This document shows positions 3,570 to 18,286 of a DNA stretch of 44,194 nt, in pieces; position 1 is the stretch's first letter, and the number at the start of each line of letters is the position of its first letter. Under the pieces are notes generated by a model. That model was not told the DNA's origin. It saw only the letters and a program-made list of their open reading frames with translations, and searched no databases. The position numbers and the translations under genes were made by a program. This DNA is from an uncultured Lachnospiraceae bacterium (GTDB lineage: Bacteria; Bacillota; Clostridia; Lachnospirales; Lachnospiraceae): positions 1-44,194 of the forward strand of contig CAMWXB010000035.1 of NCBI GenBank assembly GCA_947178125.1, written 5' to 3'.

Positions 3570-3582
3570 TTATTTACCCTTT

Positions 3583-3600: not shown

Positions 3601-3612
3601 TACCAATCAATA

Positions 3613-3632
3613 TTTGAAAGTTTACTTTCAAA
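3613..3632. promoter_or_regulatory. Second inverted repeat in the purC-purF gap
   Basis: TTTGAAAG-TTTA-CTTTCAAA is a perfect eight-base stem with a four-base loop, 16 bases after the purC stop. It could be a weak terminator or processing hairpin between purC and purF. It is AT-rich and lacks a following T-run in the minus-strand sense. Confidence 0.4.
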
Positions 3633-3648
3633 CTTTATTCTTCTACCT

Positions 3649-4353: not shown

Positions 4354-4442
4354 GATGATCCTCCTTTATATTATAAAACATTCCTGCCAATGTTACTCCG
4401 CCCCCTCTGAAAGCATCGCTCCGCATACCTTCCCTATACCCT

Positions 4443-4490
4443 GGAAGAATCGCCTCGCGATTCTTTCGTCTGAGAAAGATTTGCAACGCA
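4443..4490. repeat. Hairpin repeat family, truncated copy
   Basis: A 48-base copy of the first two-thirds of the element at 4508-4570. It has the GAATCGC-ctc-GCGATTC hairpin, then GTCTGAGAAAGATTTGC, and stops before the closing arm. One base in the first hairpin loop differs from the neighbouring copy. The pair is a short tandem duplication between the membrane coiled-coil gene and purC. Confidence 0.75.
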
Positions 4491-4507
4491 TCCCCTCACC
4501 ATAACCC

Positions 4508-4570
4508 GGAAGAATCGCCTTGCGATTCTTTCGTCTGAGAAAGATTTGCAACGCAAATCTTTCTCAGACT
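4508..4570. repeat. Bipartite hairpin element, full copy after the coiled-coil gene
   Basis: Two perfect hairpins: GAATCGC (4512-4518) with GCGATTC (4522-4528), and a 17-base stem GTCTGAGAAAGATTTGC (4533-4549) with its complement at 4553-4569, loop AAC. In the minus-strand RNA it begins three bases after the stop codon of the gene ending at 4574. Related elements occur at 5861, 31641 and 32344 with different stem sequences but the same layout. Confidence 0.8.
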
Positions 4571-4573
4571 ATT

Positions 4574-5752
4574 TTACATAGTTTTCTCATACTTTTCAAC
4601 CGTTTCTATGATTTCCTTACCATACTCCGGATAACGGTGCACAAGTTCCTTGATTTCCTTCTTGGCGCTGCCCGCCACCATATCCTTATTATAATCCATT
4701 CTTCTTCGCAGAGACTGCCTTCTGATGATCAGCCCATGCCGAATTTCCACCATTTCCTTGTGGTCAAGGATGGCCTCTGTCTGGTGGAGCCAGATTGCAG
4801 GATCCTTGACCTGGTATCTTCTTAATATTTTCAAGAGTTCCTGCTGTGTATAATCCAGATCCAGCTCGGCCCGCCTGCACTTCTCCCGTTCTTCCTTTTC
4901 CTGATAATACAGGTTCCATGCTTTTTCCAGTTCTTCCGCGCTGGTCACGTCATATTTCAGATAGAGATAATCCAGCAGATTCGTATTGTTTACATAACGT
5001 ATTTTAACGCGGTTCTGCAGCAGGATAATTTTGTTAATACTCAATTCGACCCGCTTTAATTCCCGTTTCGCCTCCATATGCTTCACATAAATCATCGTGA
5101 TTGCCAATGCCGCTACCCCGGCCGTGATCAGATAACCGAGTTTTGTATCCATTTCCAACAGAAACTGCAATCCCAGCAGCAAGGCAAAGCACAGGCCCAG
5201 CGCGGTCACGCAGATGACCGCCATGCCTTTTGTATCCGCAATTGTGCCGATCAGTTCATTTTTCCGATAAAAGTACGCGTGTTTTTCCCCTTCCAGCCTG
5301 CTCAAATCCTTTTTGATCAGTTCCTGATACTGCTCCGCTTCTTTCAGCTTACTGCATCCCTCTTCGACTTCATCAAGCATCCTTTCTATCTGCTGAAAAC
5401 GCGAATCACTCATCCGGCGTTTTCTGCCCATATAGTCATCCCGGCTGTTCTGCAGAAGTTCTACCCGCTTGGCACAGCTTTTCAGTTCTTCTGCTTCTTC
5501 TTCCGGAATCGCCTCGATTTCTTCCATATCTTTCAAATAAGAAGTCACTGTATTGTACTCAAAATTCAGATTTTCCAGTTCCTTCGCGGCTTCCGCTATT
5601 TTTCCCAGGCAATTACGGACATACTCTTCCCGCACTTCCCGATTGGTAAAGTCAACACGCTCTTCCTCTGTGGACTCTTCCCATTCCTCTTCATAATCAA
5701 TTTCTTCCGGTTTCTTTCTGAACTTATCAATGAACTTTTTAAAAATACCCAT
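4574..5752 (-). CDS. Coiled-coil membrane protein of unknown function
   Basis: I do not recognise a named family. The 392 residues start with a basic, then very acidic, cytosolic segment (MGIFKKFIDKFRKK, then EEEWEESTEEE). A long charged heptad-like region follows (about 60-165), then two hydrophobic segments (about 175-195 AVICVTALGLCFALLLGLQFLL and 205-222 YLITAGVAALAITMIYV), then a second coiled-coil region to the C-terminus. This predicts a hairpin membrane anchor with both ends in the cytosol. AAAGGGTT precedes the ATG. It is the last gene of the four-gene DUF5717-like operon and may tether the other products to the membrane; that role is inference from position only. Confidence 0.7.
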   Translation of the reverse strand: MGIFKKFIDKFRKKPEEIDYEEEWEESTEEERVDFTNREVREEYVRNCLGKIAEAAKELENLNFEYNTVTSYLKDMEEIEAIPEEEAEELKSCAKRVELLQNSRDDYMGRKRRMSDSRFQQIERMLDEVEEGCSKLKEAEQYQELIKKDLSRLEGEKHAYFYRKNELIGTIADTKGMAVICVTALGLCFALLLGLQFLLEMDTKLGYLITAGVAALAITMIYVKHMEAKRELKRVELSINKIILLQNRVKIRYVNNTNLLDYLYLKYDVTSAEELEKAWNLYYQEKEEREKCRRAELDLDYTQQELLKILRRYQVKDPAIWLHQTEAILDHKEMVEIRHGLIIRRQSLRRRMDYNKDMVAGSAKKEIKELVHRYPEYGKEIIETVEKYEKTM

Positions 5753-5860
5753 TTTTCAACCCTTTCATCCTACCGTCCCGCCGGCCTAAACTAATCCAAA
5801 TGAAATCCGATGATTTCATTGCAGAATGACCCGACAAGAGCATTCTTAGAACATAGTCAT

Positions 5861-5910
5861 GGAAGAACCGCATCAGCGATTCTTTCGTGTGAAGAGGGGT
5901 TCTTCACACT
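5861..5910. repeat. Bipartite hairpin element overlapping the TPR-gene stop codon
   Basis: First hairpin GAACCGC (5865-5871) / GCGATTC (5876-5882) with one G-U pair. Second hairpin GTGTGAAGA (5887-5895) / TCTTCACAC (5901-5909), loop GGGGT. The second arm contains the stop codon of the gene ending at 5904, so the last codons of that gene are part of the element. Confidence 0.7.
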
Positions 5911-6752
5911 TTCATACACTCCCTGTAATCGTCCTTGAGTGCGCTCGTCAGCTTTTCTATCTCGCCATAATATGGCGTCGCATTCCCGGCAGTGCTGCTT
6001 CCCTCTTCCTTACACACCCGCAGGGTAAAAAGCATTCGGTTCTCATCCGTCATATCATATTCGCCTGCTGCCTGCTCCACCACTCTTTCCACCTGCAGCG
6101 AAGCGTCATACCATTCGGGATGGCCGGCAATGAAATCAACGTATTCTTCTTCTTTGTCCTGCATACGGTGCGCTGTCAGAAAAAGCTTCAGGCTTTCAAC
6201 ACTGCCATTCGACTGATAAGCCGCCAGAAAATCTTCCTGAGCGCGCTCAAATAAGAACAATCTGGCATTGACGACACCTCTGTTATGCAGCACTTTCCCG
6301 CGCAGTTCCCGCTCTCCGGACGGAAGTCTGGACAGCAGTTCATCATACCGGTCCAGAGCCAGCATATAGCGGCCGTTCTGTAACATATAATCCGCTTTGG
6401 TCTTTTGCCGCTCATATGGATTTAAGCCCGCGCTGTTGCGAATCACCGTTTCCACATGGGAAATCGTTTTGGCCGGATATAAGCCTGCATATTCCAGTAT
6501 CATTCCTACATACGCGCTCGCCGAGCCCCGCTGGTTCACCAGCGCATACAGCGCATGGGCAAGTGTCGGAAGACCGCATTGCTCGTCCAGCCAGCGCGCC
6601 AGCTTATCGCTCACGATTTCCTGGTCTATCAGCTCCACGTTTTCCACAAAACAATAACAGAGTTCTTCCAGAGAATATAGGTTTACATAAGTTTTTTCAA
6701 AAAAATATGGGATTTCCGCATAATTCCCCGTTCCCAATATAATGCGGCTCAT
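5904..6752 (-). CDS. TPR-like helical protein of the DUF5716/5717 operon
   Basis: 282 residues with no signal peptide or membrane segment, so cytosolic. The central part (about 130-200: ADYMLQNGRYMLALDRYDELL, then LHNRGVVNARLFLFERAQEDFLAAY) has the spacing of paired TPR helices, with the typical small residue and aromatic positions. The N-terminus (MSRIILGTGNYAEIPYFFE) and C-terminus are not recognised. AAAGGCGGG precedes the ATG. It lies 29 bases after the DUF5716-like gene and 151 bases before the coiled-coil membrane gene. A scaffold or adaptor role in that module is inference; the TPR call is from sequence pattern only. Its end overlaps a hairpin repeat. Confidence 0.7.
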   Translation of the reverse strand: MSRIILGTGNYAEIPYFFEKTYVNLYSLEELCYCFVENVELIDQEIVSDKLARWLDEQCGLPTLAHALYALVNQRGSASAYVGMILEYAGLYPAKTISHVETVIRNSAGLNPYERQKTKADYMLQNGRYMLALDRYDELLSRLPSGERELRGKVLHNRGVVNARLFLFERAQEDFLAAYQSNGSVESLKLFLTAHRMQDKEEEYVDFIAGHPEWYDASLQVERVVEQAAGEYDMTDENRMLFTLRVCKEEGSSTAGNATPYYGEIEKLTSALKDDYRECMKV

Positions 6753-6781
6753 ACGCTGCCCGCCTTTCTCTTATGCCTTCT

Positions 6782-8110
6782 CTATGTGATGGCGAACTGC
6801 TTTGTCCATACCTTTTTGCTGGGCGGAAACAGTTCCCCGAATCCCAAATCCGTAATCTGCGCCTCAACGCATTCTGCAGAAGTCATTCTGATCTTGATAT
6901 CATACCTGCTGAATGCGCCCGTCCTGACCGGTGCATCCTCGAGAATAAATTCCCGAAGCTGGGCACGCTTGCCCGTCAGCGGCGTAACGAGAAAAGAAAT
7001 CACATTTTCATCCCCCGGTAAAAGAATATCGCACTCTTTCTGCACCTCGTACCAGTTCTCTCCTGCATCGAGCAGAGCGAAATATGACTCTTTCCCCCGC
7101 CGGAGCACATTCATGCCGATATTGGCCTTCAGCTTGTCCGCACCGAGAAAAATATGCTCTTTTCCCATCTGGCTCGGCTCCAGCTTCTCTAAAAGTCCGA
7201 AACAGGCCCCTTTGCAGAACAGATTATTTCCCTGAAAAACACGGCGGTTCCTGCATAGAAAACGCAGGGATTCTTTCGCCCATTCTTCGCGGAAACCGTC
7301 CCCCAGCAGATAGACCGCCGAAACAATTCTGTCCGCGCACTGTTCCTTTAAAAGCTCCAGAAACTTTTCGTCCGCCAGTTTAAAGCTGTCCGCCCGGATT
7401 TCCTCCTCTTCCTGTTCATTCGGAAGAATCAGGGAAGAACAGGTCTGCTCTTCAATCAGAACGACCATCGGCGTTGTCTTTTTATTCCGCTCGAACCGGT
7501 AAATCTTTAATCGCAGACGGTTATGTTCACAGACAAGCACCTGATAATTCCACAATTCCTCCGGCTGATGCAGTACGAAATGATATAAACTCTCAATATG
7601 GCTCTGAAAATATATCTGCGATGTCTTCAGATTCAGATTCACGGCCGCTTTTGCCAGCACATCCACCATCCTGTCGTCTAAATGCTCTACCGTGAACATG
7701 ATAGCCCCTATATTTTCCGTCGTCACCATGAAATTCAGCAAGGCAAGACTTCTTTTTAAAAACAGCGTCAGCAGGGCCACCGGATCAAAGGCTTCCTCTT
7801 CTATTGTAATCATTCCGCCTTTTCTTGCAAGCCCTATCAGATCAGTCACAAGAAATCCGTCCTCCTCCTGGCTGTATTTGACGGCATCCTTGCCGTACAG
7901 CCACTGGTTCACCCCTTTTCGTTTACATAACACTGTCGGAATATTATACTGTTTTGTCCCGATCACGGTCGCCACACTTTCCACCACGTTTTCCCCGTAA
8001 ACGCAATAGCTGATCTGAGAAAAATCATCCCCCAGATCATAACCCACCAGAATGCTTCCTTTATGCACTTTTTCTTCTGTCTTTTTATTAAAAAGCATAT
8101 CCAACACCAC
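6782..8110 (-). CDS. DUF5716-like protein with actin/Hsp70-type fold features
   Basis: 442 residues, cytosolic. ILVGYDLGDDFSQISYCVYG near residue 20 resembles the phosphate-1 loop of actin/Hsp70 ATPases (DLGTTxS). Later segments follow the same order as Hsp70: a K-D-A region near 75, TTENIGAIMFTVEHLDDRMVDVLAKAA near 130, an IESLYHFVLHQ stretch near 170, and VYLLGDGF near 275. The nucleotide-binding glycines are not all kept, so it may be a degenerate ATPase. I recall adjacent DUF5716 and DUF5717 genes in Lachnospiraceae; the family name is from memory. The listed GTG is two bases from the DUF5717-like stop. An ATG at 8098 (MLFNKK) is an equally possible start; neither has a strong ribosome site. 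Function unknown. Confidence 0.7.
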   Translation of the reverse strand: MVLDMLFNKKTEEKVHKGSILVGYDLGDDFSQISYCVYGENVVESVATVIGTKQYNIPTVLCKRKGVNQWLYGKDAVKYSQEEDGFLVTDLIGLARKGGMITIEEEAFDPVALLTLFLKRSLALLNFMVTTENIGAIMFTVEHLDDRMVDVLAKAAVNLNLKTSQIYFQSHIESLYHFVLHQPEELWNYQVLVCEHNRLRLKIYRFERNKKTTPMVVLIEEQTCSSLILPNEQEEEEIRADSFKLADEKFLELLKEQCADRIVSAVYLLGDGFREEWAKESLRFLCRNRRVFQGNNLFCKGACFGLLEKLEPSQMGKEHIFLGADKLKANIGMNVLRRGKESYFALLDAGENWYEVQKECDILLPGDENVISFLVTPLTGKRAQLREFILEDAPVRTGAFSRYDIKIRMTSAECVEAQITDLGFGELFPPSKKVWTKQFAIT

Positions 8111-8112
8111 TT

Positions 8113-11100
8113 TTACTGTAAGGTAAACAGTTTATCGGTCATAAAATCCTTCTTATAATATTCTTCCAGCAGCGTATTCACCGTATCATAATCCTGCATG
8201 GTCTTACCGATCATGATATCGTTCAGCAGCTGAAAACGGCTGCCTGCATGAAACTGGCTGCTGCTATCATTCTTACTGATCGTGCCGCTTTCCGTCACCT
8301 GCTCCTTACCATCGGCTTCCTCCGTGATATAATATTGCAGCCGCTCTCCAAAAAAGAGAATAAACTCCTTGACACAGATTCCCCCGAACATATCCCGCAT
8401 CGTTTCCTTACAGTATTCCTGTTCTTTTCCGTCTTCCCGCTGAATCAGATAATGGATCATCACACGCCGCCCCGGCTTCGCACGATATTCCAAAATCGCC
8501 TTATCCTGCAGCATATCGAGCGCGGGAAGATAACCCTGGTAGGATTTGAACAACGGCAGAACGATTTTCTGATGCAGCAGGTCACGCAGAAAATCCGTGA
8601 TCATTTCTTTCATGTCTTCCGTAAGTTCTTTCGGATTTTCCTCATAATATTTCAAATAAGCTAATTTACACACGAGATGCAGTTCTTCCTTCTCCCTGTA
8701 CATCTGCCGGATGCTGCGGAAAATGGCATTATCCACTACTTTTTCCCCAATGACATAATCATAGCAGATCTGCGACAGGAAAGCGGAAATAACCTCTTCC
8801 TTTCCGCCGGCTTTGGTATAGGCATCAAAAATTTCCATCTCTTCGCCAATATACGAACCGGTATACAAAGTCTGTACGATGATCCGTTCGCTGATCTCAT
8901 AGGCGTCCACGCCGAAATCCACTGCCGCCTTCCAGATATCCCGCATATCTTTGATGCTGCCGTTATAGTGCCGATTCAGATATTTTAAGATCTGTTCGTC
9001 ATATTTTCTTTTTTTGACAACATACTGAAGAATGCCCGTCATAAAAGGGTCCTCTTCCATTTCCGCTTCGTGCTGTGCGAGCAGCCTGCTGAACAGTCTG
9101 ACAAGTGTCTTCACATCGATGCGGTAAGGCCCGGTACAGCGTACCCACTCGTAAGCCTCTTTATACATTCCCCGAAGTACCATAATGCGTACGACTTCCT
9201 TTCGGTCATCCTCCGCAATCTGTTCCGGATTCAGTGAAAGCAGATACTCATCCAACTCCCACATTCTGTCTTTTTCATAGTAGAACTGCACAAGTCCGAT
9301 TCTGATTTCCTGACGTTTTCCTTCCGTTAAAAAATCTGAATCGGCCAGATACCGGAAACGCTCTACATTTTCCTCCTGTATGCTCAGACCGCTCTTATGG
9401 TCATAGCAGACATACAGAGAATAACCCAGATGTTCCCTGATGAAAGGGGATGCGAGCTGAAACAACCGGTTCGTCGTGATCAGCTGTTCCGCTCTGCAGG
9501 TAATGCTGTTCGTATAACGGTTCCGCGCCCCGTCCTCTAACACGATCTTACACTCCTCATCAAACACCGGAACCTGCGCCCGCCTGTTCGTGACGGAATA
9601 CATCATCTCCTTCACGCCATACGGATAGACTAAAACAACCTGCTTAATGGCATCACTCTCCACCGTAATATCCTGCATGAACAAAAGTTCCATGAGCGCC
9701 TTCGCCACGTCTGCATCGACCATGGACTGTTCCAGAACATTCCGGTACAGATAAGCCAGATTTTTGTTGATCCTGCCATGCTTTATCTGTTCGATGACAA
9801 AATGCTCGATAGCGGACAGATAGCTGATATAAATATCCGGAATTTCCTCCTGATGCTTCCACACATAGGCGTACAGCCATGCCGTTATTTCATAATGCAG
9901 ATCGCTCTGATAGGAAAAATACATCAATATCATTTTGGGAAGAGTCTGCCTGTCATCCAGTGTAATCGACATCATATAATATTCATATAACCGCGTGATC
10001 CGCAGATTCTGCTCCACACCGGCCTGATACCATTTGAAATACTTACTGCCCTGCTTGTTCCCCCGCATCAGAGTCGCACAGATTGCATGAAGAATATCGC
10101 TCTGCGGCTTTTTCTCATAACAGGAGATCAGAATCCGCAGTAAAAGCTCAGAATATCCTTTCTGTTTCTGCGCCAGATACAGAAGCTGTATCATGACATC
10201 ATCCTTCATTGCTTCATTTTTGGCCGCAAAATTCAGAATCTGCAATTCAAAATCACCAAGCTTCATCAGCATGGCCGGATTCATACAGATTAAATTCCAC
10301 GCCTCGAGATAAACGATCGGACTATAACATCTATATGCAAAAAGTTCTTCCAAAAGCGCCCATTTTCTGGCCGCACTTCTCGTATATTCCTCCGATATGA
10401 ACAGCAGCAGCCATGCAATCCGCCAATTGCCGCGGTTCCTCTCATACAGGCCTGCAATTCGCCGGGATATCCCGTCCACATACCGGTCACTTTTGCTGTT
10501 AAGGGTCGTCAGATACAGATAATAACAGCCTATTTCCGGCTTTTCCCCCCATAGTTCTTCTATTTCACCCTTGCTCTGTTCCAAAATCCACTCCGCTTCG
10601 TGAAAACGTTCCTGTGTCATAAAAAGCTGGGCCTGAAACAGCTTTGCCGAAATATCATTGCCGTCCACTTCCTTCAAACGCTCCACCAGGCTGCCCGATT
10701 CTTCCATCCAGGTCCTGGCGCTGATCCTTTTCAGCCGATAGGCCTGGTAATTCTGTATGAGCTGCATCGTCACGCGTTTCTGTTCCCGTTTCATTTCCGA
10801 TAACTTCCGCCCGATCTCCGCACGGCAGATAATTGTCACCGGAATCGTGACTGTCTTTTCAAAACTGATCAGGCGGATACATCCGTAATTATTCCCCGCA
10901 TGAAGCTTTTCATCCTGTATATAATAATATAAACGATACAGATTCCCAAGAAAAGCGTCCTCCGTAACAAGTTTTTCATCTACCTTCAGGAAATCTCCCT
11001 CCGTCTTGACACGAAGGCATGTATACCCCCATCCGTTTCGGTGAATGACAAGGGTATAACGTGTCATTGCCGCAGGCTCCTCAATCCTGATTTCTGCTTC

Positions 11101-11694
11101 TTCCGGCAAAAACTCCACCGGCTTCTTTTTATTGATCTCCAACAGAAACTCTTCCACATTATGCTCATTGCCATAGACTGCTGAAAGACCTTTATAGGCC
11201 GCATAATGCTGCTTACCGTTTCCGGCGAGTATCTGTTCAAATGCAGGACTGTAAAAAAGCTTCACCGCCTCCGGCCAGTTGCTTTTTGCGAGATTGGTAA
11301 AGTGAAAAAGGTTCTTGATCTCTCCCAGGCTGGACGTTATCTCTTCCGCCGTAATGGAAACTGAAAAAGGGAGATAATATTCTCCCTGATTTGATATCAT
11401 ATGAAAAGCGCCTTTGACCTCTTCTCCGGCCGCTGAGCCGGAAGCATCGAACCGATAAAAGATCTCATCCTGACTGCCTCCGAAAGTAGATGCAAGACAG
11501 GCCATCCGCAGGTCTGAAGACACGATATAACCTTCCGTCACAACATTTTTGGCCCCATACAGGACAAAAGACCCCTCCGCCGTCTCACCCGCCTGTACGG
11601 ACAATTCGACCCGCGGGCATGAAAAATCCAGCGTGCTATTTTCATACTTAAAATTTCCGTCTAATATTTCACGAATGATCTGCTTCAACTTCAC
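8113..11694 (-). CDS. DUF5717-like giant helical protein
   Basis: 1,193 residues with no signal peptide. The N-terminal ~300 residues are beta-rich (VELSVQAGETAEGSFVLYGA, SVSITAEEI). The remainder is almost entirely alpha-helical with TPR/alpha-alpha repeat character (for example QAQLFMTQERFHEAEWILEQSKGE and MVLRGMYKEAYEWVRCTGPY). Length and arrangement match my memory of the DUF5717 family of Lachnospiraceae, which stands next to DUF5716. It starts at a GTG with GGAAGCG upstream. It is the first gene of a four-gene operon driven by a good promoter at 11730-11759. No function is known; the operon content suggests a large cytosolic scaffold working with an actin/Hsp70-like partner, which is inference. 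Confidence 0.75.
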   Translation of the reverse strand: MKLKQIIREILDGNFKYENSTLDFSCPRVELSVQAGETAEGSFVLYGAKNVVTEGYIVSSDLRMACLASTFGGSQDEIFYRFDASGSAAGEEVKGAFHMISNQGEYYLPFSVSITAEEITSSLGEIKNLFHFTNLAKSNWPEAVKLFYSPAFEQILAGNGKQHYAAYKGLSAVYGNEHNVEEFLLEINKKKPVEFLPEEAEIRIEEPAAMTRYTLVIHRNGWGYTCLRVKTEGDFLKVDEKLVTEDAFLGNLYRLYYYIQDEKLHAGNNYGCIRLISFEKTVTIPVTIICRAEIGRKLSEMKREQKRVTMQLIQNYQAYRLKRISARTWMEESGSLVERLKEVDGNDISAKLFQAQLFMTQERFHEAEWILEQSKGEIEELWGEKPEIGCYYLYLTTLNSKSDRYVDGISRRIAGLYERNRGNWRIAWLLLFISEEYTRSAARKWALLEELFAYRCYSPIVYLEAWNLICMNPAMLMKLGDFELQILNFAAKNEAMKDDVMIQLLYLAQKQKGYSELLLRILISCYEKKPQSDILHAICATLMRGNKQGSKYFKWYQAGVEQNLRITRLYEYYMMSITLDDRQTLPKMILMYFSYQSDLHYEITAWLYAYVWKHQEEIPDIYISYLSAIEHFVIEQIKHGRINKNLAYLYRNVLEQSMVDADVAKALMELLFMQDITVESDAIKQVVLVYPYGVKEMMYSVTNRRAQVPVFDEECKIVLEDGARNRYTNSITCRAEQLITTNRLFQLASPFIREHLGYSLYVCYDHKSGLSIQEENVERFRYLADSDFLTEGKRQEIRIGLVQFYYEKDRMWELDEYLLSLNPEQIAEDDRKEVVRIMVLRGMYKEAYEWVRCTGPYRIDVKTLVRLFSRLLAQHEAEMEEDPFMTGILQYVVKKRKYDEQILKYLNRHYNGSIKDMRDIWKAAVDFGVDAYEISERIIVQTLYTGSYIGEEMEIFDAYTKAGGKEEVISAFLSQICYDYVIGEKVVDNAIFRSIRQMYREKEELHLVCKLAYLKYYEENPKELTEDMKEMITDFLRDLLHQKIVLPLFKSYQGYLPALDMLQDKAILEYRAKPGRRVMIHYLIQREDGKEQEYCKETMRDMFGGICVKEFILFFGERLQYYITEEADGKEQVTESGTISKNDSSSQFHAGSRFQLLNDIMIGKTMQDYDTVNTLLEEYYKKDFMTDKLFTLQ

Positions 11695-11729
11695 ACCACG
11701 CTTCCGAAAGGTTTTTACTCATTTCTGTT

Positions 11730-11759
11730 ATTATAGCATTTAACCATCGGTCTTAGCAA
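11730..11759 (-). promoter_or_regulatory. Sigma-A type promoter of the DUF5717-like operon
   Basis: On the minus strand TTGCTA (11759-11754), an 18-base spacer, then TATAAT (11735-11730) preceded by TGC, i.e. an extended -10. It is about 35 bases upstream of the GTG start. Confidence 0.7.
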
Positions 11760-11830
11760 GGTGAAAGATGTCTGAAAGTAGTCTGATGAAGGTAGTTCGA
11801 AGGGGAATGTCAAGCCTTTATCAGACAAAA

Positions 11831-11862
11831 ACCGGGACAGAAGATTCCTCTCCCGCCCCGGT
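11831..11862 (-). terminator. Terminator after the sleC-like gene
   Basis: In the minus-strand RNA, ACCGGG (11862-11857) pairs with CCCGGT (11836-11831) across a 20-base loop, followed by TTTTTG. It stands 24 bases after the stop of the sleC-like 3' half. Confidence 0.5.
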
Positions 11863-11885
11863 CCTCTTTTTTAAACTCTTTTTCA

Positions 11886-12479
11886 TCAACCCGGTTCCGA
11901 TATCCGGCTGACACCCACATAGACGTCTGAAATCTCATACCATGTAGGATAATCCGTAATCCCGCTCTGCGGCAGTCCGAATACTTTCTGGAACACCCGC
12001 ACGGCCTCTGCCGTCGAAGAACCATAGATACCGTCCACCGTAAGTTTCGGAATCGCCGGATAATTCTGTGCAATCCGGTTGAGCTGCTGCTGCAGCTGTC
12101 TGACCTTATCCCCCGATGCGCCGATTCCGAGATTATACCCCGGCCAAGAGGAAGGTACGCCGGCCACGCTGACTGCCGAATTAATATACATATCGCTGCC
12201 ATAATAATATCGAATGATCTCAATGGCAGAATATCCTTCATCCCCAAGATATTTGGAGCCCCATTGGCTGAGGCCGTCGCAGGTCACACGCTGGCCGTCG
12301 CAATAGGATGTAAAAATGGGCTGCCTGACTCCCGGTCTGGAAAGAAAATTCGTAAAAATACTGTCTACCAGCCTGTCGATATTCTCAAATGTATTTCTGC
12401 CCCGAATCCACTTCTGGTCATAAGCGGTAGAGGAAGTGATCGTAAAGTTGTAGCCCTGGTTGCGATACCGCGAGACCAC
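11886..12479 (-). CDS. sleC: SleC-like spore cortex-lytic enzyme, 3' half (split gene)
   Basis: C-terminal half of a SleC-type germination enzyme, which degrades spore cortex peptidoglycan. Codons from Y5 onward (YRNQGYNFTITSSTAYDQ, then CDGQRVTCDGLSQWGSKYLG) continue the SpoIID-like lytic domain. Residues about 117-183 form a peptidoglycan-binding domain (LGIGASGDKVRQLQQQLN, AVRVFQKVFGLPQSG). The first four codons of the open frame come from the inserted element; its GTG has no ribosome site and is not a native start. The upstream half lies at 17537-18223. Joining at the shared TACC gives 228 + 193 = 421 codons without a frameshift, the length I expect for SleC (about 420-440). It ends at its own terminator. 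It is silent unless the element is excised. SleC identity is from memory of the clostridial proteins. Confidence 0.8.
   Translation of the reverse strand: MVSRYRNQGYNFTITSSTAYDQKWIRGRNTFENIDRLVDSIFTNFLSRPGVRQPIFTSYCDGQRVTCDGLSQWGSKYLGDEGYSAIEIIRYYYGSDMYINSAVSVAGVPSSWPGYNLGIGASGDKVRQLQQQLNRIAQNYPAIPKLTVDGIYGSSTAEAVRVFQKVFGLPQSGITDYPTWYEISDVYVGVSRISEPG
12466..12469. other. Left attachment core (TACC)
   Basis: The last point at which host sleC sequence (GCCCTGGTTGCGA-TACC on the plus strand) matches an uninterrupted gene. To the right, the sequence no longer encodes SleC. Four identical bases are shared with the right junction, typical of the short cores used by large serine recombinases. Confidence 0.8.
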
Positions 12480-12486
12480 CGCTCAT
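12478..12486 (+). repeat. ACCGCTCAT direct repeat, left copy
   Basis: Identical nine bases occur at 17505-17513, close to the other end of the element. In the circular excised form the two would lie on either side of the core in the same orientation. Possible recombinase-binding repeat. Confidence 0.5.
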
Positions 12487-12489
12487 TCG

Positions 12490-13569
12490 TCATGAACCGG
12501 TAATGGAAATGGCGTGCATATACGCATCGTTACCACGCGCACAGGTCACTGTAACTTTCTTACCGCTTACCAGCACCTTGCAGTTATTGACACTGCTTAC
12601 TGAATCCAGCTTCAACTCCATCTCCCCATAACTCGTCGATAAGTAGAGCAGATTTTCATTGGACTTGCTTCCGACCGTTCCTGTTACCGTCGAGGCAGAA
12701 GACGTATCCACCGATACCGACGAACTGTCTTTTGATGCAAAAATCGTCGCCGCGTGCATGTAAGCATCCGAGCCGCGGTAAACCGAAACTGTCAGCTTAT
12801 TGCCGGGCGTAAGAACGATGCCGTTTCTGGAATCCGTATTATTATCAATCGCAATCTGCATCACACCATTACTGGTCGATAAATAGAGCAGATTTTCTTT
12901 TGTATCACTCGTTACCGTACCGGATACCGTTGATGTATCTACATTGACGGCCGAAACCGGCGCCGGCGTTACGCCTGTATAATTCGTTCCCGACGAACCG
13001 CTTGTCCCCGATGAACCCGACGCTCCATCCGTAATGCTCACCGCGTGCATATAGGCATCTGAGCCCCGCACACATACAATGCTGTATGTCTTATCCGCCA
13101 CAAGAACGGAACAGCCGCTCAGATTTGTCGTAGGATCCATCTTAATCTCCATATCCCCCTGCGGTGTCTTAAAGAAAAGCACATCGCCATTGCTTTTGTT
13201 CCCGATCGTTCCCGTCACCGTAGTGGATGTCGAAGAATCCAACGTCGTTGCCGGTGCCTGGGTTTCTCCTGAAAGCTTTACCGCATGAAGATATCCGTCA
13301 GAACCATGTGACACAGAAACCGACACCTTACTATCCGGCAGCAAAATCTTACAGCCGCTCGTATCCGTTCCGCTATCCAGCTTGATCTGCATTTCACCCT
13401 CTTTGGTAGAAAGCCGCAGCAAATCGGAAGTCGTACCGGATGCCACTGTCCCCTGCACCGTCGCAATTATCTCCGCCGCCTGTATTTCCAGCGAATTGAC
13501 CGGTACCGCCGCTATGCCGCATACAAGGCCGGCCGTCAGACATAACTTTGCAAATTTATCCCGTTTCAT
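12490..13569 (-). CDS. Secreted protein with four beta-rich repeats (element cargo)
   Basis: 359 residues from the ATG at 13569, chosen because AGGAG lies about ten bases upstream and because it gives a clean signal peptide (MKRDKFAKLCLTAGLVCGIA, cleavage near QAAE). An in-frame extension to 13626 lacks this. Four repeats of about 65-75 residues follow. Each starts V(T/S/Q)GTV, passes through LLYLST..GEMxIKLD and ends in a motif like GSDAYMHAVSI. Ser/Thr/Gly linkers separate them. The repeats recall DUF5666-type OB-like domains (GTV...LTV...VKVD), but this match is only by eye. It is the leftmost gene of the element, 20 bases from its edge, and lies downstream of the DUF5722-like gene with its own promoter region. 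Function unknown. Confidence 0.75.
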   Translation of the reverse strand: MKRDKFAKLCLTAGLVCGIAAVPVNSLEIQAAEIIATVQGTVASGTTSDLLRLSTKEGEMQIKLDSGTDTSGCKILLPDSKVSVSVSHGSDGYLHAVKLSGETQAPATTLDSSTSTTVTGTIGNKSNGDVLFFKTPQGDMEIKMDPTTNLSGCSVLVADKTYSIVCVRGSDAYMHAVSITDGASGSSGTSGSSGTNYTGVTPAPVSAVNVDTSTVSGTVTSDTKENLLYLSTSNGVMQIAIDNNTDSRNGIVLTPGNKLTVSVYRGSDAYMHAATIFASKDSSSVSVDTSSASTVTGTVGSKSNENLLYLSTSYGEMELKLDSVSSVNNCKVLVSGKKVTVTCARGNDAYMHAISITGS

Positions 13570-13645
13570 AAATATCACACTCCTATTCCCGTTTGCGAAG
13601 AATGGCTCTTCATTCCCTTTATACACAAAAAAAGGCCACTATCCC

Positions 13646-13672
13646 ATATTATGTAAATATATATTATGTAAA
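13646..13672 (-). promoter_or_regulatory. AT-rich promoter region with 12-base direct repeat
   Basis: ATATTATGTAAA occurs twice (13646-13657 and 13661-13672), starting 15 bases apart. On the minus strand this reads TTTACATAATAT twice and supplies several overlapping -35/-10 possibilities for the four-repeat secreted protein. No single promoter stands out; a repeat-binding regulator is possible. Confidence 0.35.
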
Positions 13673-13750
13673 GTCATCATACAATATTTACCACGGAAAA
13701 TCAACATTTTTTTAAAGAAATATAGAAGTTATGGTAACAATATTCCGCCC

Positions 13751-13786
13751 AAAAAGAAAGGCAGAAGCCCCGTTCCGGCTCCTGCC
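13751..13786 (-). terminator. Intrinsic terminator after the DUF5722-like gene
   Basis: In the minus-strand RNA GGCAGGAGCC (13786-13777) pairs with GGGCTTCTGCC (13770-13760), followed by TTTCTTTTT. It begins about 36 bases after the stop codon at 13822 and separates the two cargo genes. Confidence 0.75.
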
Positions 13787-13821
13787 CGCATTTTATAAAT
13801 ATCCCAAAAGCTTCCGTTCTG

Positions 13822-15465
13822 TTACTGTACTACGCCTGTTCCGCTTCTGGTCCACATAATATTCTGACTGATCATTTCATCAATATCCATTCCGATGATT
13901 TCGGACGCCCTTGCTTTCGCTGCCGCCTCATTCGCTGTGCCAAGGCTCTTGTAAATCTCATAAGACGGCTTTTTGTTTCCGTTCAGGTCGAAAAGGCCAA
14001 GCGCAAGATGACTTTCCATTTCGCTCGCTTCATCGGTCTGTCTGAACAGGATAAAGGAATCGATCTCCGGGAACGACGCCGCTTTCAAGTAACCATAAAC
14101 GATAGAGGCCTCCTGCTGTTCGTTTCCGAAGCTGGAAGTATATCCGATTTCCGCAAGGGAAATACTTCTCACCTCTCCCGCCGGATTCAGGAAACTGCTC
14201 TGGTGCATATAATCAATCAGAATACCGAGATTCTGCATTGTAATGTAAGGCGACGTAATGCTGTTCTGTACCCACACTGCAGGACCGTTCCAGGCATAAG
14301 GATCATACAGAGGCGAATTATATGGATGGAAGGAAAGTCCCCAATCTATATTGCCTTCCCGCGTCATATAGTAATTAAATCTGTCCAGATAATCTTTGGA
14401 CAAAAAGCTTCCGGGATTGGATTTCCGGTTCCATTCCTGGTCGATGGAATTATAAATCCGCACATTTGCATTCATGCTCTTCATCTCATTATAGATGATA
14501 CGGAACGCTTTCACATAAATACCGACATTATAATCCAGCGAATCAGAATTCGTATACCACCATGAAGTCCTCGCATTGACTTCATTTCCCAGAATCCAGT
14601 TATCGACCTGCCCGCAGCCGAACTTGCCTGAATAACGCTGTGCCAGAAAAGCGCCGACCGCCTTCAGATGACCAACACCCGCTTCATCTTCCACATTCAA
14701 TGCGTATCCCGGACATTCCGCCCCAACAGCCTTCGGATGAACCATATCCTGTGAAAAAGGACTTTCTCCGCGGTTCAGAAGTACAATATTGACCTGTACG
14801 CCATAATTGTTAAAACTTTTGAACATAGAATCAAATTTACCGATCATCCCGCCGTTAAAATAATAGGTCGTTCCATTATAGGTAAATGGAATCGCACCCG
14901 GCTCCGACTCTGCAGAACAGATATCATCGACTGCCATATTGTACACGACCTGTTTGATGCCAAGCTCCTGCACTTCTTCTTTGGAAGACTTCGTTAAATC
15001 CGGCAGGATTCCCTTGATACCGTTATCCATGCGCGCTGCCGTATAGGCCGCGATTGCTTCCGGGTTCGTAATATAATGTTCGTCGCTCACCTGAATCATC
15101 TGTCCATTCTGTTTTACCGCAATAATGAACTTACGGCTCAGATTAGATTCCGCAGTATTATAATTCAGCGGAAAACTGATTGAAACGGAAGTTCCTGCAT
15201 CTGCTGTTGCAACAATACTCCCTGTCGTTCCATCCTGAAAGACTTCATCCGCATAAACGTAAAATTTGCCGTCATCGCTTGCCGGAACACTGCTCGTACT
15301 GAGTTTGCAGACGACATCCGTTCCGGAAATCAGACAGGAATCAATCGATACGGAACGCCCCGCAGCCTCAACATACTGCTGTCCGCTGTCACCAACACAT
15401 ACGCCGCCCACAACCAACAGGAGCGCCGCTATCACCGCTGTCAAAAGTCTTCTTCTGTTACTCAT
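13822..15465 (-). CDS. Secreted DUF5722-like TIM-barrel protein, probable glycoside hydrolase relative (element cargo)
   Basis: 547 residues from the ATG at 15465, which has GGAGG five bases upstream. The signal peptide is MSNRRRLLTAVIAALLLVVG with likely cleavage after VEAA. Residues 38-130 look like a beta-sandwich; the rest looks like a (beta/alpha)8 barrel. WILGNEVNA (E295) and SLAEIGYTS (E439) have the form of the acid/base and nucleophile Glu of clan-A glycoside hydrolases, and SFHPY near 378 is also typical. The overall pattern matches my memory of DUF5722. Substrate unknown. It is transcribed from a strong promoter at 15524-15552, divergent from the recombinase genes, and ends at an intrinsic terminator. 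Being inside the element it would be lost from a cell that excises it. Confidence 0.8.
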   Translation of the reverse strand: MSNRRRLLTAVIAALLLVVGGVCVGDSGQQYVEAAGRSVSIDSCLISGTDVVCKLSTSSVPASDDGKFYVYADEVFQDGTTGSIVATADAGTSVSISFPLNYNTAESNLSRKFIIAVKQNGQMIQVSDEHYITNPEAIAAYTAARMDNGIKGILPDLTKSSKEEVQELGIKQVVYNMAVDDICSAESEPGAIPFTYNGTTYYFNGGMIGKFDSMFKSFNNYGVQVNIVLLNRGESPFSQDMVHPKAVGAECPGYALNVEDEAGVGHLKAVGAFLAQRYSGKFGCGQVDNWILGNEVNARTSWWYTNSDSLDYNVGIYVKAFRIIYNEMKSMNANVRIYNSIDQEWNRKSNPGSFLSKDYLDRFNYYMTREGNIDWGLSFHPYNSPLYDPYAWNGPAVWVQNSITSPYITMQNLGILIDYMHQSSFLNPAGEVRSISLAEIGYTSSFGNEQQEASIVYGYLKAASFPEIDSFILFRQTDEASEMESHLALGLFDLNGNKKPSYEIYKSLGTANEAAAKARASEIIGMDIDEMISQNIMWTRSGTGVVQ

Positions 15466-15523
15466 TTTTTCCTCCATTCCAACGTGTCTCTCAAAGTTCT
15501 TCCTTATATTTTATGTATGCCTT

Positions 15524-15552
15524 ATTATAACATACCGCATTTTAAATGTCAT
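15524..15552 (-). promoter_or_regulatory. Sigma-A type promoter of the DUF5722-like gene
   Basis: Minus strand: ATGACA (15552-15547), 17-base spacer, TATAAT (15529-15524) with TG one base upstream (extended -10). The start codon is 58 bases downstream. Confidence 0.75.
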
Positions 15553-15584
15553 TACCGCCTTTCAAAAAATTGAACAGTGAAAAT

Positions 15585-15613
15585 GAATATACCGGCCTTT
15601 CCCGCAATACGAT
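15585..15613 (+). promoter_or_regulatory. Sigma-E-like promoter candidate for the recombinase operon
   Basis: GAATATA (15585-15591), 14-base spacer, AATACGAT (15606-15613). Against the Bacillus sigma-E consensus KMATATT-N14-CATACANT this is 6 of 7 and 5 of 7 defined positions at the standard spacing. A start about seven bases on would leave a short leader with a GGGG-type ribosome site before the ATG at 15647. No convincing sigma-A pair is seen here. The resemblance is by eye. Confidence 0.45.
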
Positions 15614-15646
15614 AAATAGAAAGACATCATTCCGGGGAAAAGAAAT

Positions 15647-15856
15647 ATGCCTACCAGAAAAAACTGCACGAAAGAAATCCACCGGGAAATCGATTATGGC
15701 CCTGCTAAAATCCATCTCATACTGCAATTTCCTTCCGGACAGTTCCCAACTGACCGGTTTCCGCCCACCGCCTCTCCCCCGCCCCCGGAAGACACTCTCA
15801 GGCAGGAAGTCCTTGCAATCCTGAGCCGGGAATTATCCGGAAAGGCTTTCCCGTGA
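15647..15856 (+). CDS. Small protein translationally coupled to the serine recombinase
   Basis: 69 residues: MPTRKNCTKEIHREIDYGPA, then a strand-like KIHLILQF, a proline-rich linker (FPPTASPPPPED) and an amphipathic helix (LRQEVLAILSRELSG). CGGGG precedes the ATG by about nine bases. Its TGA stop overlaps the recombinase GTG as GTGA, which argues strongly for translation. I do not recognise the family. Small genes next to large serine recombinases sometimes encode recombination directionality factors, and a regulator or excision partner is the natural hypothesis here, but that is inference. A longer overlapping frame (15546-15824) lacks coupling and looks like a shadow. Confidence 0.6.
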   Translation: MPTRKNCTKEIHREIDYGPAKIHLILQFPSGQFPTDRFPPTASPPPPEDTLRQEVLAILSRELSGKAFP

Positions 15857-17505
15857 AAAGGGTGCGCATTCTGCTGAGGGTCAGTTCGAATCAACAGTTG
15901 GAAGCCGACGGAGATTTATCCGTACAGCGCCAGCTCGTTCAGGACTACATACAGCAGCATGAAGACTGGCGGTTAGATAATAAGGAATATTTTGAAGGAA
16001 GCAGCAGCGGCTATAAAAATGCAGTTGACAAAAGAGATATTTTGCAGGAAGCGCTGGCAGACGCCAAAAAGGGCGAATATGACATTCTGGCCGCTTATAA
16101 GGACGACCGGATCGGCCGGCGCATGTGGGAAATCGGCGCGTATGTCATGACGCTGAAAAGCTGCCATGTCGATATCTACACGGTCAAAGACGGCTGTATC
16201 TCCCCGGAAGACAACGATATCATGGGACAGATGATGCTTGCACTGCGCTATGGAAACGCACAGAAAAGCAGTTCCGATACAGGAATGCGGGTAAAGGATA
16301 CCGCCGAAAAACTGGTCAGGAAAGGAAAATTCATGGGCGGCGCCGCACCTTACGGCTACCGGCTGGTCTTTTCCGGAGAACTGAGTAAGCACGGGCGGGC
16401 GCTTCACCGATTGGAAATCGTTCCTGAACAGGCGGAATTTGTCAGGAAGATTTATGACCTTTCCTTCTATCAGGAATTTGGCTCCGTGAAAATCGCAAAG
16501 ACTTTGAACGCAGATGAATATGCAAAAAAGATGGCCCCCGGCGGCGAATGGAAATGCGGCACGATTACCGGTATTCTGACCAATCCCGTCTATGCCGGCT
16601 ATCCCGCCTACAAGCGTCGGGAGCGAATCGGCGGAACATATCACAGGCAGGCACAGGATGCCTGGGTCATGGCCGAAAAGCCTGCCTCCGGTATCCGTAT
16701 CATCGACGGCGCCCTCTGGAATCTGGTACAGGAAAAAAGAAAAAAACGGGCCGCCAGATATCAGCCGGCAGGGACGGCCCGTGAAAAGGACCGGAACCCC
16801 CCTGTTATCTCCAGAAATGACGGCATCCTTTCCCTGCGCGATGTACTCTACTGCGGCTGCTGCGGCAGAAAGATGACGAACGGAACTCGTTATAGCTACT
16901 GGACCCTTCAAGGCACCGGAGAAAAGCGAAGCAGAAAAATTCCACTTTACCGCTGCCCATCGGCCCATAACGGAATCCCCCACGACGGAAGCGCACAGTT
17001 CCAGGCAGATGTGCTGGAAACGGCAGTCTTCCGCTGTCTTGCGGATTACATTGGCTGGCTGCTAAAAGAAGACGATATCACCGTGATCTGCGAAGAAAAC
17101 CGCTCTTCGCAGAAAAAAGCGTTGGAAACAGAGCAAAAACACCTTCAAAAGGAACTTGTCAAGGTCACACAGGATATCCTTATCATGCAGGAGCACATAC
17201 CGGATGCCATGTCCGGCGCTTATCCATTTTCCGTCACGGAACTTGCGGACGCCATCAGGCGGCATACGGAGAAAAAAGACCTGTTAGAAAAAGAATGGCG
17301 CACGAGAAATGATGCGCTTAAAAAGTTCGATGCCGAAACAACTGCACATGTCCTGTTCCCGCAGGAAGAGAACCGCCCGCCGCTCACCTGGATACAGGTC
17401 TTTGATGGCGCCTCCGCCGAAACAAAGCGTGTAATCGTAAACAGACTTCTCGAACGGATTGAAATATCAAAAGAGCAGCTCATAATACGTTTTCGGAACT
17501 GCTGA
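15853..17505 (+). CDS. Large serine recombinase
   Basis: 550-residue site-specific recombinase that would cut and rejoin the element ends. The N-terminal resolvase domain has RVSSNQQ with catalytic Ser11, and KDDRIGRR (83-90) supplies active-site arginines. A recombinase domain follows (about 160-290: GGAAPYGYRL, ITGILTNPVYAGYPAYKRR). The zinc ribbon has C334/C337 (LYCGCCGRKM) and C368 (YRCP). A long coiled coil (about 405-470) and a C-terminal strand region complete the standard large serine integrase plan, as in SpoIVCA of skin elements. Start is GTG, with GGAAAGG seven bases upstream, overlapping the stop of the small ORF. It is the rightmost gene, 32 bases from the right att core, in opposite orientation to sleC. 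Confidence 0.93.
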   Translation: MKRVRILLRVSSNQQLEADGDLSVQRQLVQDYIQQHEDWRLDNKEYFEGSSSGYKNAVDKRDILQEALADAKKGEYDILAAYKDDRIGRRMWEIGAYVMTLKSCHVDIYTVKDGCISPEDNDIMGQMMLALRYGNAQKSSSDTGMRVKDTAEKLVRKGKFMGGAAPYGYRLVFSGELSKHGRALHRLEIVPEQAEFVRKIYDLSFYQEFGSVKIAKTLNADEYAKKMAPGGEWKCGTITGILTNPVYAGYPAYKRRERIGGTYHRQAQDAWVMAEKPASGIRIIDGALWNLVQEKRKKRAARYQPAGTAREKDRNPPVISRNDGILSLRDVLYCGCCGRKMTNGTRYSYWTLQGTGEKRSRKIPLYRCPSAHNGIPHDGSAQFQADVLETAVFRCLADYIGWLLKEDDITVICEENRSSQKKALETEQKHLQKELVKVTQDILIMQEHIPDAMSGAYPFSVTELADAIRRHTEKKDLLEKEWRTRNDALKKFDAETTAHVLFPQEENRPPLTWIQVFDGASAETKRVIVNRLLERIEISKEQLIIRFRNC

Positions 17506-17513
17506 CCGCTCAT
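17505..17513 (+). repeat. ACCGCTCAT direct repeat, right copy
   Basis: Matches 12478-12486. It begins at the last base of the recombinase stop codon and ends 24 bases before the right core. Confidence 0.5.
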
Positions 17514-17536
17514 ACCCCGAATCAGCATCGGTTCCG

Positions 17537-18223
17537 CTACCACTCCGTATATACTCTGTTCAGCGTAAAGGACAGAATCGCCAGAATATTTGCATAAATG
17601 CTGCTTTCCGGCCAGGTTGCATAAATTTCGGAAGAAGCTACATTTTTGATATAATCCTTGTACCTTACATAATAATTGGGAGCGCTGCTGTCATTGGGAA
17701 CGCCATCGTGAACGACGACGTATTCCGGCACGACCACCCTGCTCAAAACAATCTCACCGGTCTCATCCATCGGTTTGATTTCCTCTTCCGGAATTTTCGG
17801 CGGGTATTCCCCATACAATGTATGGTCCGGAATCACGAGAACTTCTTCCGGCTCATTTGCAGTCTCCGTCGGCGTCATCCGGATATTCTGCACGGCGGTC
17901 ACATCCGGCAGCACTTCCACGCCGGAAATCATGACCGGCTCATATCCGGGCGCTTCTACGGTCACATTGTACTCCGTATAAGGCATCGGGGATTCCGGTG
18001 TCAGGCTGTAAGAAAGGGGCGGTGCGGAGAGCTGTACCTCCTCTGCCTGCCCGGATATATCTGTCTCCAGTTTCTCCACTTCTGTCTCGGGTGTTCTTGT
18101 ATAGGCAATGGAAATCACGGCGTTCTGAATCGGAATCAATCCGATGTCTGAGGTCACATTAATCTGCAGTCCGCCGGTCTGCTCCCCTTCCCCTTGCGCC
18201 ATTTTAAACGTTTTCCCGTTCAT
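17537..18223 (-). CDS. sleC: SleC-like spore cortex-lytic enzyme, 5' half (split gene)
   Basis: N-terminal 228 codons of the split germination enzyme. Residues 17-120 form the pro-region of SleC-type proteins (LQINVTSDIGLIPIQNAVIS, LSAPPLSYSLTPESPMPYTE, APGYEPVMISGVEVLP). VVVPEYVVVHDG (163-174) lies where Csp proteases mature known SleC proteins. SSEIYATWPE (197-206) opens the SpoIID-like lytic domain. The frame then stops at RVYTEW-TAG, exactly at the element junction. GCAGGTAACT precedes the ATG. SleC is made in the mother cell and acts in the spore cortex at germination. The gene stands alone behind the htpG terminator, with a promoter at 18258-18286. As it stands, translation would give only the pro-region and part of the catalytic domain. 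Confidence 0.8.
   Translation of the reverse strand: MNGKTFKMAQGEGEQTGGLQINVTSDIGLIPIQNAVISIAYTRTPETEVEKLETDISGQAEEVQLSAPPLSYSLTPESPMPYTEYNVTVEAPGYEPVMISGVEVLPDVTAVQNIRMTPTETANEPEEVLVIPDHTLYGEYPPKIPEEEIKPMDETGEIVLSRVVVPEYVVVHDGVPNDSSAPNYYVRYKDYIKNVASSEIYATWPESSIYANILAILSFTLNRVYTEW
17538..17541. other. Right attachment core (TACC)
   Basis: Host sequence resumes here: plus strand TACC-ACTCCGTATATACTC, encoding ...RVYTEW on the minus strand. The bases to the left (GGTTCCGC) are element sequence and create the TAG stop. Confidence 0.8.
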
Positions 18224-18257: not shown

Positions 18258-18286
18258 TTATCATATGCAGTTTTCGGCATATTGAC
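18258..18286 (-). promoter_or_regulatory. Promoter of the sleC-like gene, shared motif with ytaF
   Basis: Minus strand GTCAAT (18286-18281), 13-base spacer, CATATGATAA (18267-18258), ending 34 bases before the ATG. The same two blocks with the same spacing precede ytaF. It can also be read as sigma-A: TTGTCA-N17-TATGAT. CATATGATA fits the CATAnnnTA form of a sigma-K -10 and partly that of sigma-E, but the -35 does not match either cleanly. Confidence 0.55.

What the first reader, a model, noticed from the sequence alone, without database searches (positions are those of the whole stretch)
12466..17541. A sleC-type germination gene is split by a precisely removable 5,072-bp serine-recombinase element
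Seen directly: the 5' half ends RVYTEW at a TAG created by the junction, and the 3' half starts YRNQGYNF. Both junctions share TACC, and joining them yields one 421-codon frame with no base gained or lost. The element encodes a large serine recombinase with its catalytic residues and has no transfer or phage structural genes. Established knowledge: in sigK (skin), and in some other sporulation genes of Bacillus, such elements are excised from the mother-cell chromosome, which is later discarded. SleC is also made in the mother cell. Inference: this may be a developmentally controlled excision that gates production of the cortex-lytic enzyme and hence germination. A simpler alternative is a recent insertion that inactivated the gene.
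Basis: partly seen in the sequence, partly recalled or inferred. Interest (0 to 1): 0.95.

Follow-up and report, generated by a model that had tools for sequence, protein, structure and literature searches.

The report
Germination gene split by excisable element
In this gut bacterium the gene for the spore-germination enzyme SleC is cut in two by a 5-kb DNA element that encodes a recombinase, and the same cut at the same codon recurs in dozens of related species whose gene halves stay intact, so the element is likely cut out in the mother cell during spore formation to rebuild the gene.

Summary
An uninterrupted relative aligns with a solved SleC (PDB 9h68, E=1.8e-139). It is no isolated accident: of the 80 closest relatives of its recombinase kept from public genomes, 77 have a SleC half in the same locus; the other 3 contigs end 5-99 bp after the recombinase. 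No stop was found in 57 split 5' parts or 58 split 3' parts. The element ends mirror each other (13.2 of 22 bases, 5.5 in shuffles). A sigma-E-like, 16-bp-spaced promoter pattern precedes the recombinase in 51 of 75 loci (4.4 expected), and a small protein, a candidate directionality factor, lies between. In 2 of 2 other species tested, an uninterrupted sleC differing by 1-2 residues exists in public data; none was found for the window's species. Near-identical recombinases in hosts with very different sleC show that the family moves. Best reading: a mobile, non-phage sleC-intervening element, likely excised in the mother cell, like skin and gin but in a new target gene. Excision, its timing and any effect on germination are not shown.

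The parts
17537..18223 (-). sleC 5' part, codons 1-228, ending TGG then a TAG stop made by the junction
   Evidence: SleC identity through the uninterrupted relative P0006
11886..12467 (-). sleC 3' part, codons 229-421 and stop, no start of its own; PG_binding_1 domain
12468..17539 (.). The 5,072-bp intervening element, cut placed in GG^TA read along sleC (TA^CC on the plus strand)
12466..12469 (.). TACC core copy at the sleC 3' part
17538..17541 (.). TACC core copy at the sleC 5' part
12468..12491 (.). Element arm beside the sleC 3' part, one half of the symmetric attP
   Evidence: 14 of 22 bases mirror the other arm, core left out
17516..17539 (.). Element arm beside the sleC 5' part, other half of the attP
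15853..17505 (+). Large serine recombinase, 550 aa, GTG start
   Evidence: R9, S11, R86, R89 invariant in nine aligned relatives; that these are the catalytic residues is recalled
15647..15856 (+). 69-aa frame overlapping the recombinase start; candidate recombination directionality factor (inferred)
   Evidence: no Pfam or PHROG match; the window copy is missed by the strict pattern but shows LQFP and EVLAIL by eye
15585..15609 (+). Predicted sigma-E-like promoter: GAATA, 16 bp, AATA
13822..15477 (-). DUF5722 protein, 551 aa; a host gene of the genus carried in the element
12490..13569 (-). 359-aa protein with an N-terminal hydrophobic stretch (secretion inferred by eye); a host gene of the genus carried in the element
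18264..18272 (-). sleC upstream region with a mother-cell-type -10-like box: CATA is at 18264-18267, 44 bp before the ATG
   Evidence: CATA(T/C)(A/G/T)ATAA in 7 of 7 genus members printed

Best explanation
A 5,072-bp non-phage element that encodes a large serine recombinase splits sleC between codons 228 and 229, and it is likely excised precisely in the sporulation mother cell so that a whole sleC can be made there, while the spore chromosome would keep the element. Shown: the exact split, the recombinase gene, the mirror-image element ends, recurrence at the same codon in many genera, open and conserved halves, and uninterrupted near-identical genes in two other species. Inferred: that the recombinase acts on these ends, that the small overlapping protein gives it the excision direction, that the promoter is read by sigma-E (perhaps with SpoIIID), and that excision is confined to the mother cell. 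The element belongs to a mobile family that can sit in sleC harmlessly because the gene would be rebuilt when needed; some copies carry host genes, here DUF5722 and the P0005 protein.
For: SleC identity. 77 of 80 recombinase relatives have a SleC half in the locus; in an even draw of 397 family genomes 12 had the recombinase (own included) and the 11 others all show a SleC half at the junction within the fetched flanks. Same GG^TA core: TA in 58 of 60 attL and GG in 58 of 74 attR after dropping repeat records. Ends mirror each other: 13.2 of 22 bases on average in 42 loci, 5.5 in shuffles, peak only at offset 0. No stop in 57 split 5' and 58 complete split 3' parts; dN/dS medians 0.060 and 0.099. 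Promoter pattern 51 of 75 (4.4 expected; 4 on the reverse strand; 3-12 at other spacers), spoIVA control 12 of 19, SASP 4 of 19. Uninterrupted same-species sleC in 2 of 2 other species whose joined protein was searched. Intact sister species lack the cargo gene: 5 of 5, against 0 of 6 split ones.
Against: No read, PCR or expression data. No uninterrupted copy at 98% or more for the window's species among 120 listed proteins. Presence is patchy: 12 of 397. A weight-matrix scan for sigma-E was not significant. The uninterrupted copies may be element-free strains. The recombinase of E. plexicaudatum ASF492 is broken into 432- and 122-aa frames, so not every copy can be working. Other cortex-hydrolase-type genes exist.
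Confidence: 0.78

Rival explanations
1. A mobile element that simply prefers sleC as attB. Insertion inactivates the gene, carriers do without SleC, and precise loss happens only by chance.
For: Patchy presence, 12 of 397; recent transfer, recombinases 99.4-99.9% identical with sleC 62-79% identical; Mob_Pre and VapE/primase genes in two copies; other cortex-hydrolase-type genes exist; broken recombinase in ASF492.
Against: No stop in 57 + 58 split parts, and low dN/dS between split pairs; L070 and L071 share the element and differ by dS 0.30 but dN 0 in the start-less 3' part. The promoter pattern is kept in 51 of 75 loci.
Confidence: 0.12
2. Excision is real but not developmental: a switch that flips in part of the growing population, giving germinating and non-germinating subpopulations.
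For: Uninterrupted near-identical genes exist in public sequence for two carrier species; the yin element of yabG is found excised at all time points in culture (PMC10747680, passages).
Against: Promoter pattern shared with spoIVA and not with SASP. If an element carrying host genes left growing cells it would take DUF5722 with it (inference).
Confidence: 0.08
3. Assembly or binning artefact.
For: The window lies in a 131-contig genome.
Against: The same split is in long contigs of other records, such as Schaedlerella arabinosiphila DSM 106076 (6.3 Mb) and Eubacterium sp. 14-2 (2.2 Mb).
Confidence: 0.01

Closest known systems
gin element in gerE of Bacillus cereus ATCC10987 (PMC5595907: abstract, Discussion and one Results section read)
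   Same: Non-phage element in a mother-cell sporulation gene; serine recombinase; inverted-repeat att site; a tiny directionality factor (GirX, 42 aa).
   Different: Target is gerE, not sleC; three recombinases; excision shown by experiment there and only inferred here; here elements range down to 2.7 kb and occur across many genera.
skin in sigK of B. subtilis and C. difficile (PMC5025042, passages)
   Same: Large serine recombinase rebuilding a mother-cell gene; spoIVCA is under sigma-E and SpoIIID in B. subtilis; C. difficile uses a 72-aa directionality factor, CD1234.
   Different: Those are prophage-like elements in sigK; in C. difficile the recombinase is expressed constitutively from a sigma-A promoter, unlike the pattern predicted here.
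yin in yabG of Clostridium botulinum (PMC10747680, passages) and SP-beta in spsM of B. subtilis (PMC4191935, search listing only)
   Same: Precise excision restores a late mother-cell gene.
   Different: Prophage or prophage-like; other target genes; yin was found in one strain only.
Other interrupted mother-cell genes: spoVFB and spoVR in B. weihenstephanensis (PMC6957869, passages)
   Same: Mobile elements in mother-cell genes, argued to persist because the spore genome keeps them.
   Different: sleC is not among the interrupted genes named in the passages I read.

Membership tests
SleC, spore cortex-lytic enzyme | End-to-end sequence match to a known SleC | tested here: met
   Uninterrupted relative P0006, residues 17-419 with PDB 9h68, E=1.8e-139; window halves match it in register
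Large serine recombinase | Resolvase N-terminal, Recombinase and zinc-ribbon domains, all over cut-off | tested here: met
Sporulation gene-intervening element | Interrupts a sporulation or germination gene at a short direct repeat with the joined frame restored exactly | tested here: met
Sporulation gene-intervening element | Precise excision observed | not testable with these tools
   No reads; uninterrupted near-identical genes in two other species are compatible
Sporulation gene-intervening element | Excision under mother-cell control | tested here: inconclusive
   Promoter pattern 51 of 75 vs 4.4 expected, but matrix scan not significant; expression untested
Sporulation gene-intervening element | Directionality factor for excision | tested here: inconclusive
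   Small protein directly upstream; strict pattern 46 of 80, 0 on the reverse strand; no activity tested
Prophage or prophage-like element (skin, SP-beta, yin) | Phage structural or lysis genes in the element | tested here: not met
   Window element: none among its proteins scanned; nearest recombinase in phage records 26% identical

The most novel reading that the evidence does not exclude
sleC is a family-wide developmental DNA-splicing site of gut Lachnospiraceae. A dedicated family of mobile elements, reducible to a 2.7-kb 'DNA intron' of little more than recombinase and small protein, lives in this one gene, survives by timing its exit to the mother cell, stacks with a second insertion in the same gene in some species, and takes up host genes, so that the growing cell and the spore carry a genome different from that of the mother cell that builds the germination enzyme.
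Probability: 0.55. Interest if true: 0.92.

Novelty: new variant of a known kind. Interest (0 to 1): 0.86.

Why it matters
If true, an enzyme that opens the spore cortex at germination is assembled by DNA rearrangement in many commensal species. That would add sleC to the mother-cell genes reported as rebuilt or interrupted in the papers I saw (sigK, spsM, spoVFB, spoVR, gerE, yabG), show that such elements can be tiny, non-phage and horizontally spread, and explain why some genomes show no intact sleC. It also offers compact recombinases with defined sites and a candidate directionality factor, and makes the question whether host or element gains from such splits testable by comparing split and intact sister species.

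Tried and rejected
Phage or ICE origin of the window element: not supported. Recent dead insertion: disfavoured. Strict vertical co-inheritance: recombinase and sleC identities correlate only weakly (Mantel r 0.30 and 0.24, though 0 of 999 permutations reach them) and clear transfers exist. A sigma-E weight matrix gave no significant excess (p=0.07 against shuffles; mean 7.8 against 8.8 on the reverse strand); the unbiased gapped-pair search then gave the pattern refined. So the pattern was found on the same loci on which it is counted; shuffles, other spacers and the reverse strand are its controls, and the loci are related. One search read control promoters without regard to strand and was redone as (19 of the 23 SASP loci used). 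The strict small-protein pattern missed 34 of 80 loci, the window among them. The five intact sister species may never have had the element: the sleC tree groups them apart (93/90) from five of the six split ones, while the 1,193-aa protein tree nests them; some of these assemblies are 80-86% complete. Uninterrupted window-species gene: none at 98% or more. Papers: eight searches listed no report of an element in sleC; preprints and most subscription journals are not held. DUF5722 was searched in 36 of 37 genus genomes (not G027). Rows dropped: L132, L140, L165 as copies of L070, L072, L071; SleC2-type loci by identity cut-offs; 80 upstream regions reduced to 75; nine repeat records.
Full report
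THE OBSERVATION. The window (G000:C35; 4.14 Mb in 131 contigs) carries two pieces of one gene on the minus strand. The 5' piece (17537-18223) ends NRVYTEW followed by a TAG; the 3' piece reads YRNQGYNF from 12467 downward. TACC occurs at 12466-12469 and 17538-17541, 5,072 bp apart. 228 + 193 codons make 421, the length of the uninterrupted gene of relative G036, which aligns over residues 17-419 with the solved SleC pre-pro-form 9h68 (E=1.8e-139).

WHAT IS INSIDE. The element encodes a 550-aa serine recombinase (15853-17505, plus) whose R9, S11, R86 and R89 are invariant in nine aligned relatives (that these are catalytic is recalled). A 69-aa frame (15647-15856) overlaps its start. Two further genes lie on the other strand: a DUF5722 protein and a 359-aa protein. 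Both are host genes of the genus. DUF5722 usually lies within about 3 kb of the second SleC paralog (at least 12 genomes: G001, G005, G009, G010, G012, G013, G019, G020, G023, G026, G031, G032), and the 359-aa protein was found in 18 of 25 genus genomes searched.

RECURRENCE. A scan of the genome-contig collection with an alignment of nine such recombinases found 141 relatives and kept the best 80. In 77 of these 80 a SleC half lies in the locus; the other three (L112, L114, L173) end 5-99 bp after the recombinase. In 68 of 80 the recombinase 3' end lies within 400 bp of the break, 23 facing the 5' half and 45 running into the 3' half. The 61 more distant relatives were not seen. An even draw of 397 family genomes (at most 3 candidates scored in each) gave 12 hits at E<=1e-60 including the window; all 11 others show a SleC half at the junction within the fetched flanks. 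In the window's genus at least 9 of 37 genomes are split: G000, G002, G006, G008, G015, G024, G030, G034 and G035, with G002 and G015 spread over two contigs. Four loci are in the SleC2-type paralog by identity (L122, L123, L124, L153). In phage records the best recombinase match is 26% identical, and five IMG/VR contigs have a relative, four of them at 52% or more.

SAME CODON, MIRRORED ENDS. The element side begins TA in 62 of 64 attL junctions and ends GG in 65 of 82 attR junctions (TG 9, CG 8); without repeat records 58 of 60 and 58 of 74. The core is GG^TA between W228 and Y229. The two element ends mirror each other: in 42 loci on average 13.2 of 22 bases, core left out, against 5.5 in shuffles and 3.2-5.8 at other offsets; the window has 14. 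This is the form of a serine-recombinase attP as described for gin (PMC5595907, Discussion).

THE HALVES ARE KEPT. In split loci none of 57 5' parts and none of 58 complete 3' parts has an in-frame stop in the aligned stretch. Median dN/dS among split pairs with dS below 1.2 is 0.060 (19 pairs) and 0.099 (16 pairs). L070 and L071 share the element and differ by dS 0.30 but dN 0 in the 3' part, which has no start of its own.

UNINTERRUPTED COPIES. The joined SleC of Eubacterium sp. 14-2 (L171) finds P0127, P0128 and P0129 (423 aa), which differ by 1-2 residues and run straight through TEWYRN. The joined SleC of Mediterraneibacter catenae (L147) finds P0247 and P0248 (421 aa), with 1-2 differences. 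So in 2 of 2 species tested this way the predicted joined gene exists in public sequence; whether from element-free strains or from excision is not known. For the window's species, sought through the relative's protein, the best whole gene is 95.6/93.8% identical (P0047).

EVOLUTIONARY LOSS. Eleven genus members form a supported clade (99/99 and 100/100). Six are split (G000, G006, G008, G024, G030, G035) and all carry the DUF5722 orthologue, inside the element in five and just upstream of sleC in G008. Five are intact (G004, G011, G017, G021, G036) and all lack it, though 23 of the other 25 genus genomes searched have it. The tree of the neighbouring 1,193-aa protein puts the split pair G024+G030 outside the other seven sampled members (100/100), so loss of element plus cargo fits. 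The HtpG tree leaves the order open, and the sleC tree groups the intact five together (93/90), which would also fit their never having had the element.

PREDICTED CONTROL. A gapped-pair search upstream of 75 non-redundant recombinases found GAAT-N17-AATA in 35 (3.0 in shuffles). The wider pattern [GT][AC]AT[AG]-N16-[CA]ATA occurs in 51 of 75 (4.4 in shuffles), against 3-12 at spacers 10-15 and 17-22 and 4 on the reverse strand. The spoIVA genes, the sigma-E control, have it (N15-17) in 12 of 19 (2.2 expected); SASP genes, the forespore control, in 4 of 19 (2.1). In C. difficile sigma-E and sigma-K promoters share the -10 and differ by ATA versus AC at -35 (PMC3789822, passages). A SpoIIID-like KRT(A/G)ACARK box is in 17 of 75 (3.9 expected); the C. 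difficile box is KRTAACARK (PMC5025042, passages). A matrix scan was not significant, so this stays a prediction. B. subtilis spoIVCA is under sigma-E and SpoIIID, and C. difficile sleC is a sigma-K gene. Upstream of sleC, 7 of 7 genus members printed share a CATA(T/C)(A/G/T)ATAA box.

SMALL PROTEIN. A short frame precedes the recombinase in most loci; a strict pattern for its core hits 46 of 80 loci and none on the reverse strand. Five examples match no Pfam or PHROG family beyond weak, sub-threshold hits. By position and size it resembles the directionality factors CD1234 (72 aa) and GirX (42 aa). That role is inferred.

MOBILITY AND CARGO. L143, L144 and L147 have recombinases 99.8-99.9% identical in DNA while sleC is 73-79% identical; L119 and L120, 99.4% against 62%. 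Where both halves were seen within the 8-kb flanks, elements are 2.7-9.2 kb (36 loci; larger ones could not be seen). Twenty long cargo proteins were scanned: ABC transporters, a CHASE2 cyclase (also a Pycsar-cyclase hit), a hybrid histidine kinase, GH2, purine-type transport, iron alcohol dehydrogenases, DUF6020, FliD_C, a leucine-rich-repeat protein and two without a match, with Mob_Pre (L120), VapE/primase (L183) and rve (L147) as the mobility-type hits. The smallest elements still hold an unassigned frame of 142-162 aa beside the recombinase.

OTHER SLEC GENES. The window genome's second SleC paralog is itself cut: its 5' part lies on C5 beside another recombinase, its 3' part on C16, with integrase, repressor and ParA-type genes on the C5 side and an endolysin on the C16 side. 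Four Hydrolase_2 matches exist, one of them on the phage side of C5, so loss of SleC need not block germination. In 9 of 15 named genomes searched, several chosen because their 3' part looked cut, sleC is in three pieces with a second break near codon 292-303.

VERDICT. A real, recurrent, precisely bounded element family in sleC. Excision in the mother cell is the best explanation and is untested.

Noticed in passing
L068 (G000:C5:8000-24000) 9561-10520 and L069 (G000:C16:50000-60205) 5799-6836: The window genome's second SleC paralog is split at another site, with a recombinase, integrase, repressor and ParA-type genes on one side and an endolysin on the other: a prophage in a second cortex-lytic gene.
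   Followed up: partly
L249 and L250 (E. plexicaudatum ASF492), also G457-G463 and G465: sleC in three pieces: besides the codon-228 element, a second insertion near codon 292-303 (about 66 kb in ASF492, with ParA-like, ABC-transporter-like and several recombinase-like frames by eye).
   Followed up: partly
L249 4553-6266: In ASF492 the sleC-element recombinase is broken into frames of 432 and 122 aa, so this strain may be unable to rebuild sleC.
   Followed up: no
L073 (G008:C1) 8320-9981: DUF5722 lies outside the element, between htpG and the sleC 5' part, although it is inside in five relatives: host genes seem to cross the element border.
   Followed up: no
L072 (G024:C4) 2658-13752: The G024 element holds two recombinases of the family (54% and 37% identical to the window's) about 5.5 kb apart, as if two elements had fused.
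   Followed up: no
L080 (G049:C15) 4866-9831: In another family of the order sleC is split near residue 69 of the window's 3' part by a 3.7-kb stretch with an unrelated recombinase: independent targeting of the same gene.
   Followed up: no
L077 (G034:C69) about 4944: The sequence just before the 3' part repeats the sleC-like TATACCGAATGG that ends the 5' part, unlike most other loci; a different junction history is likely.
   Followed up: no
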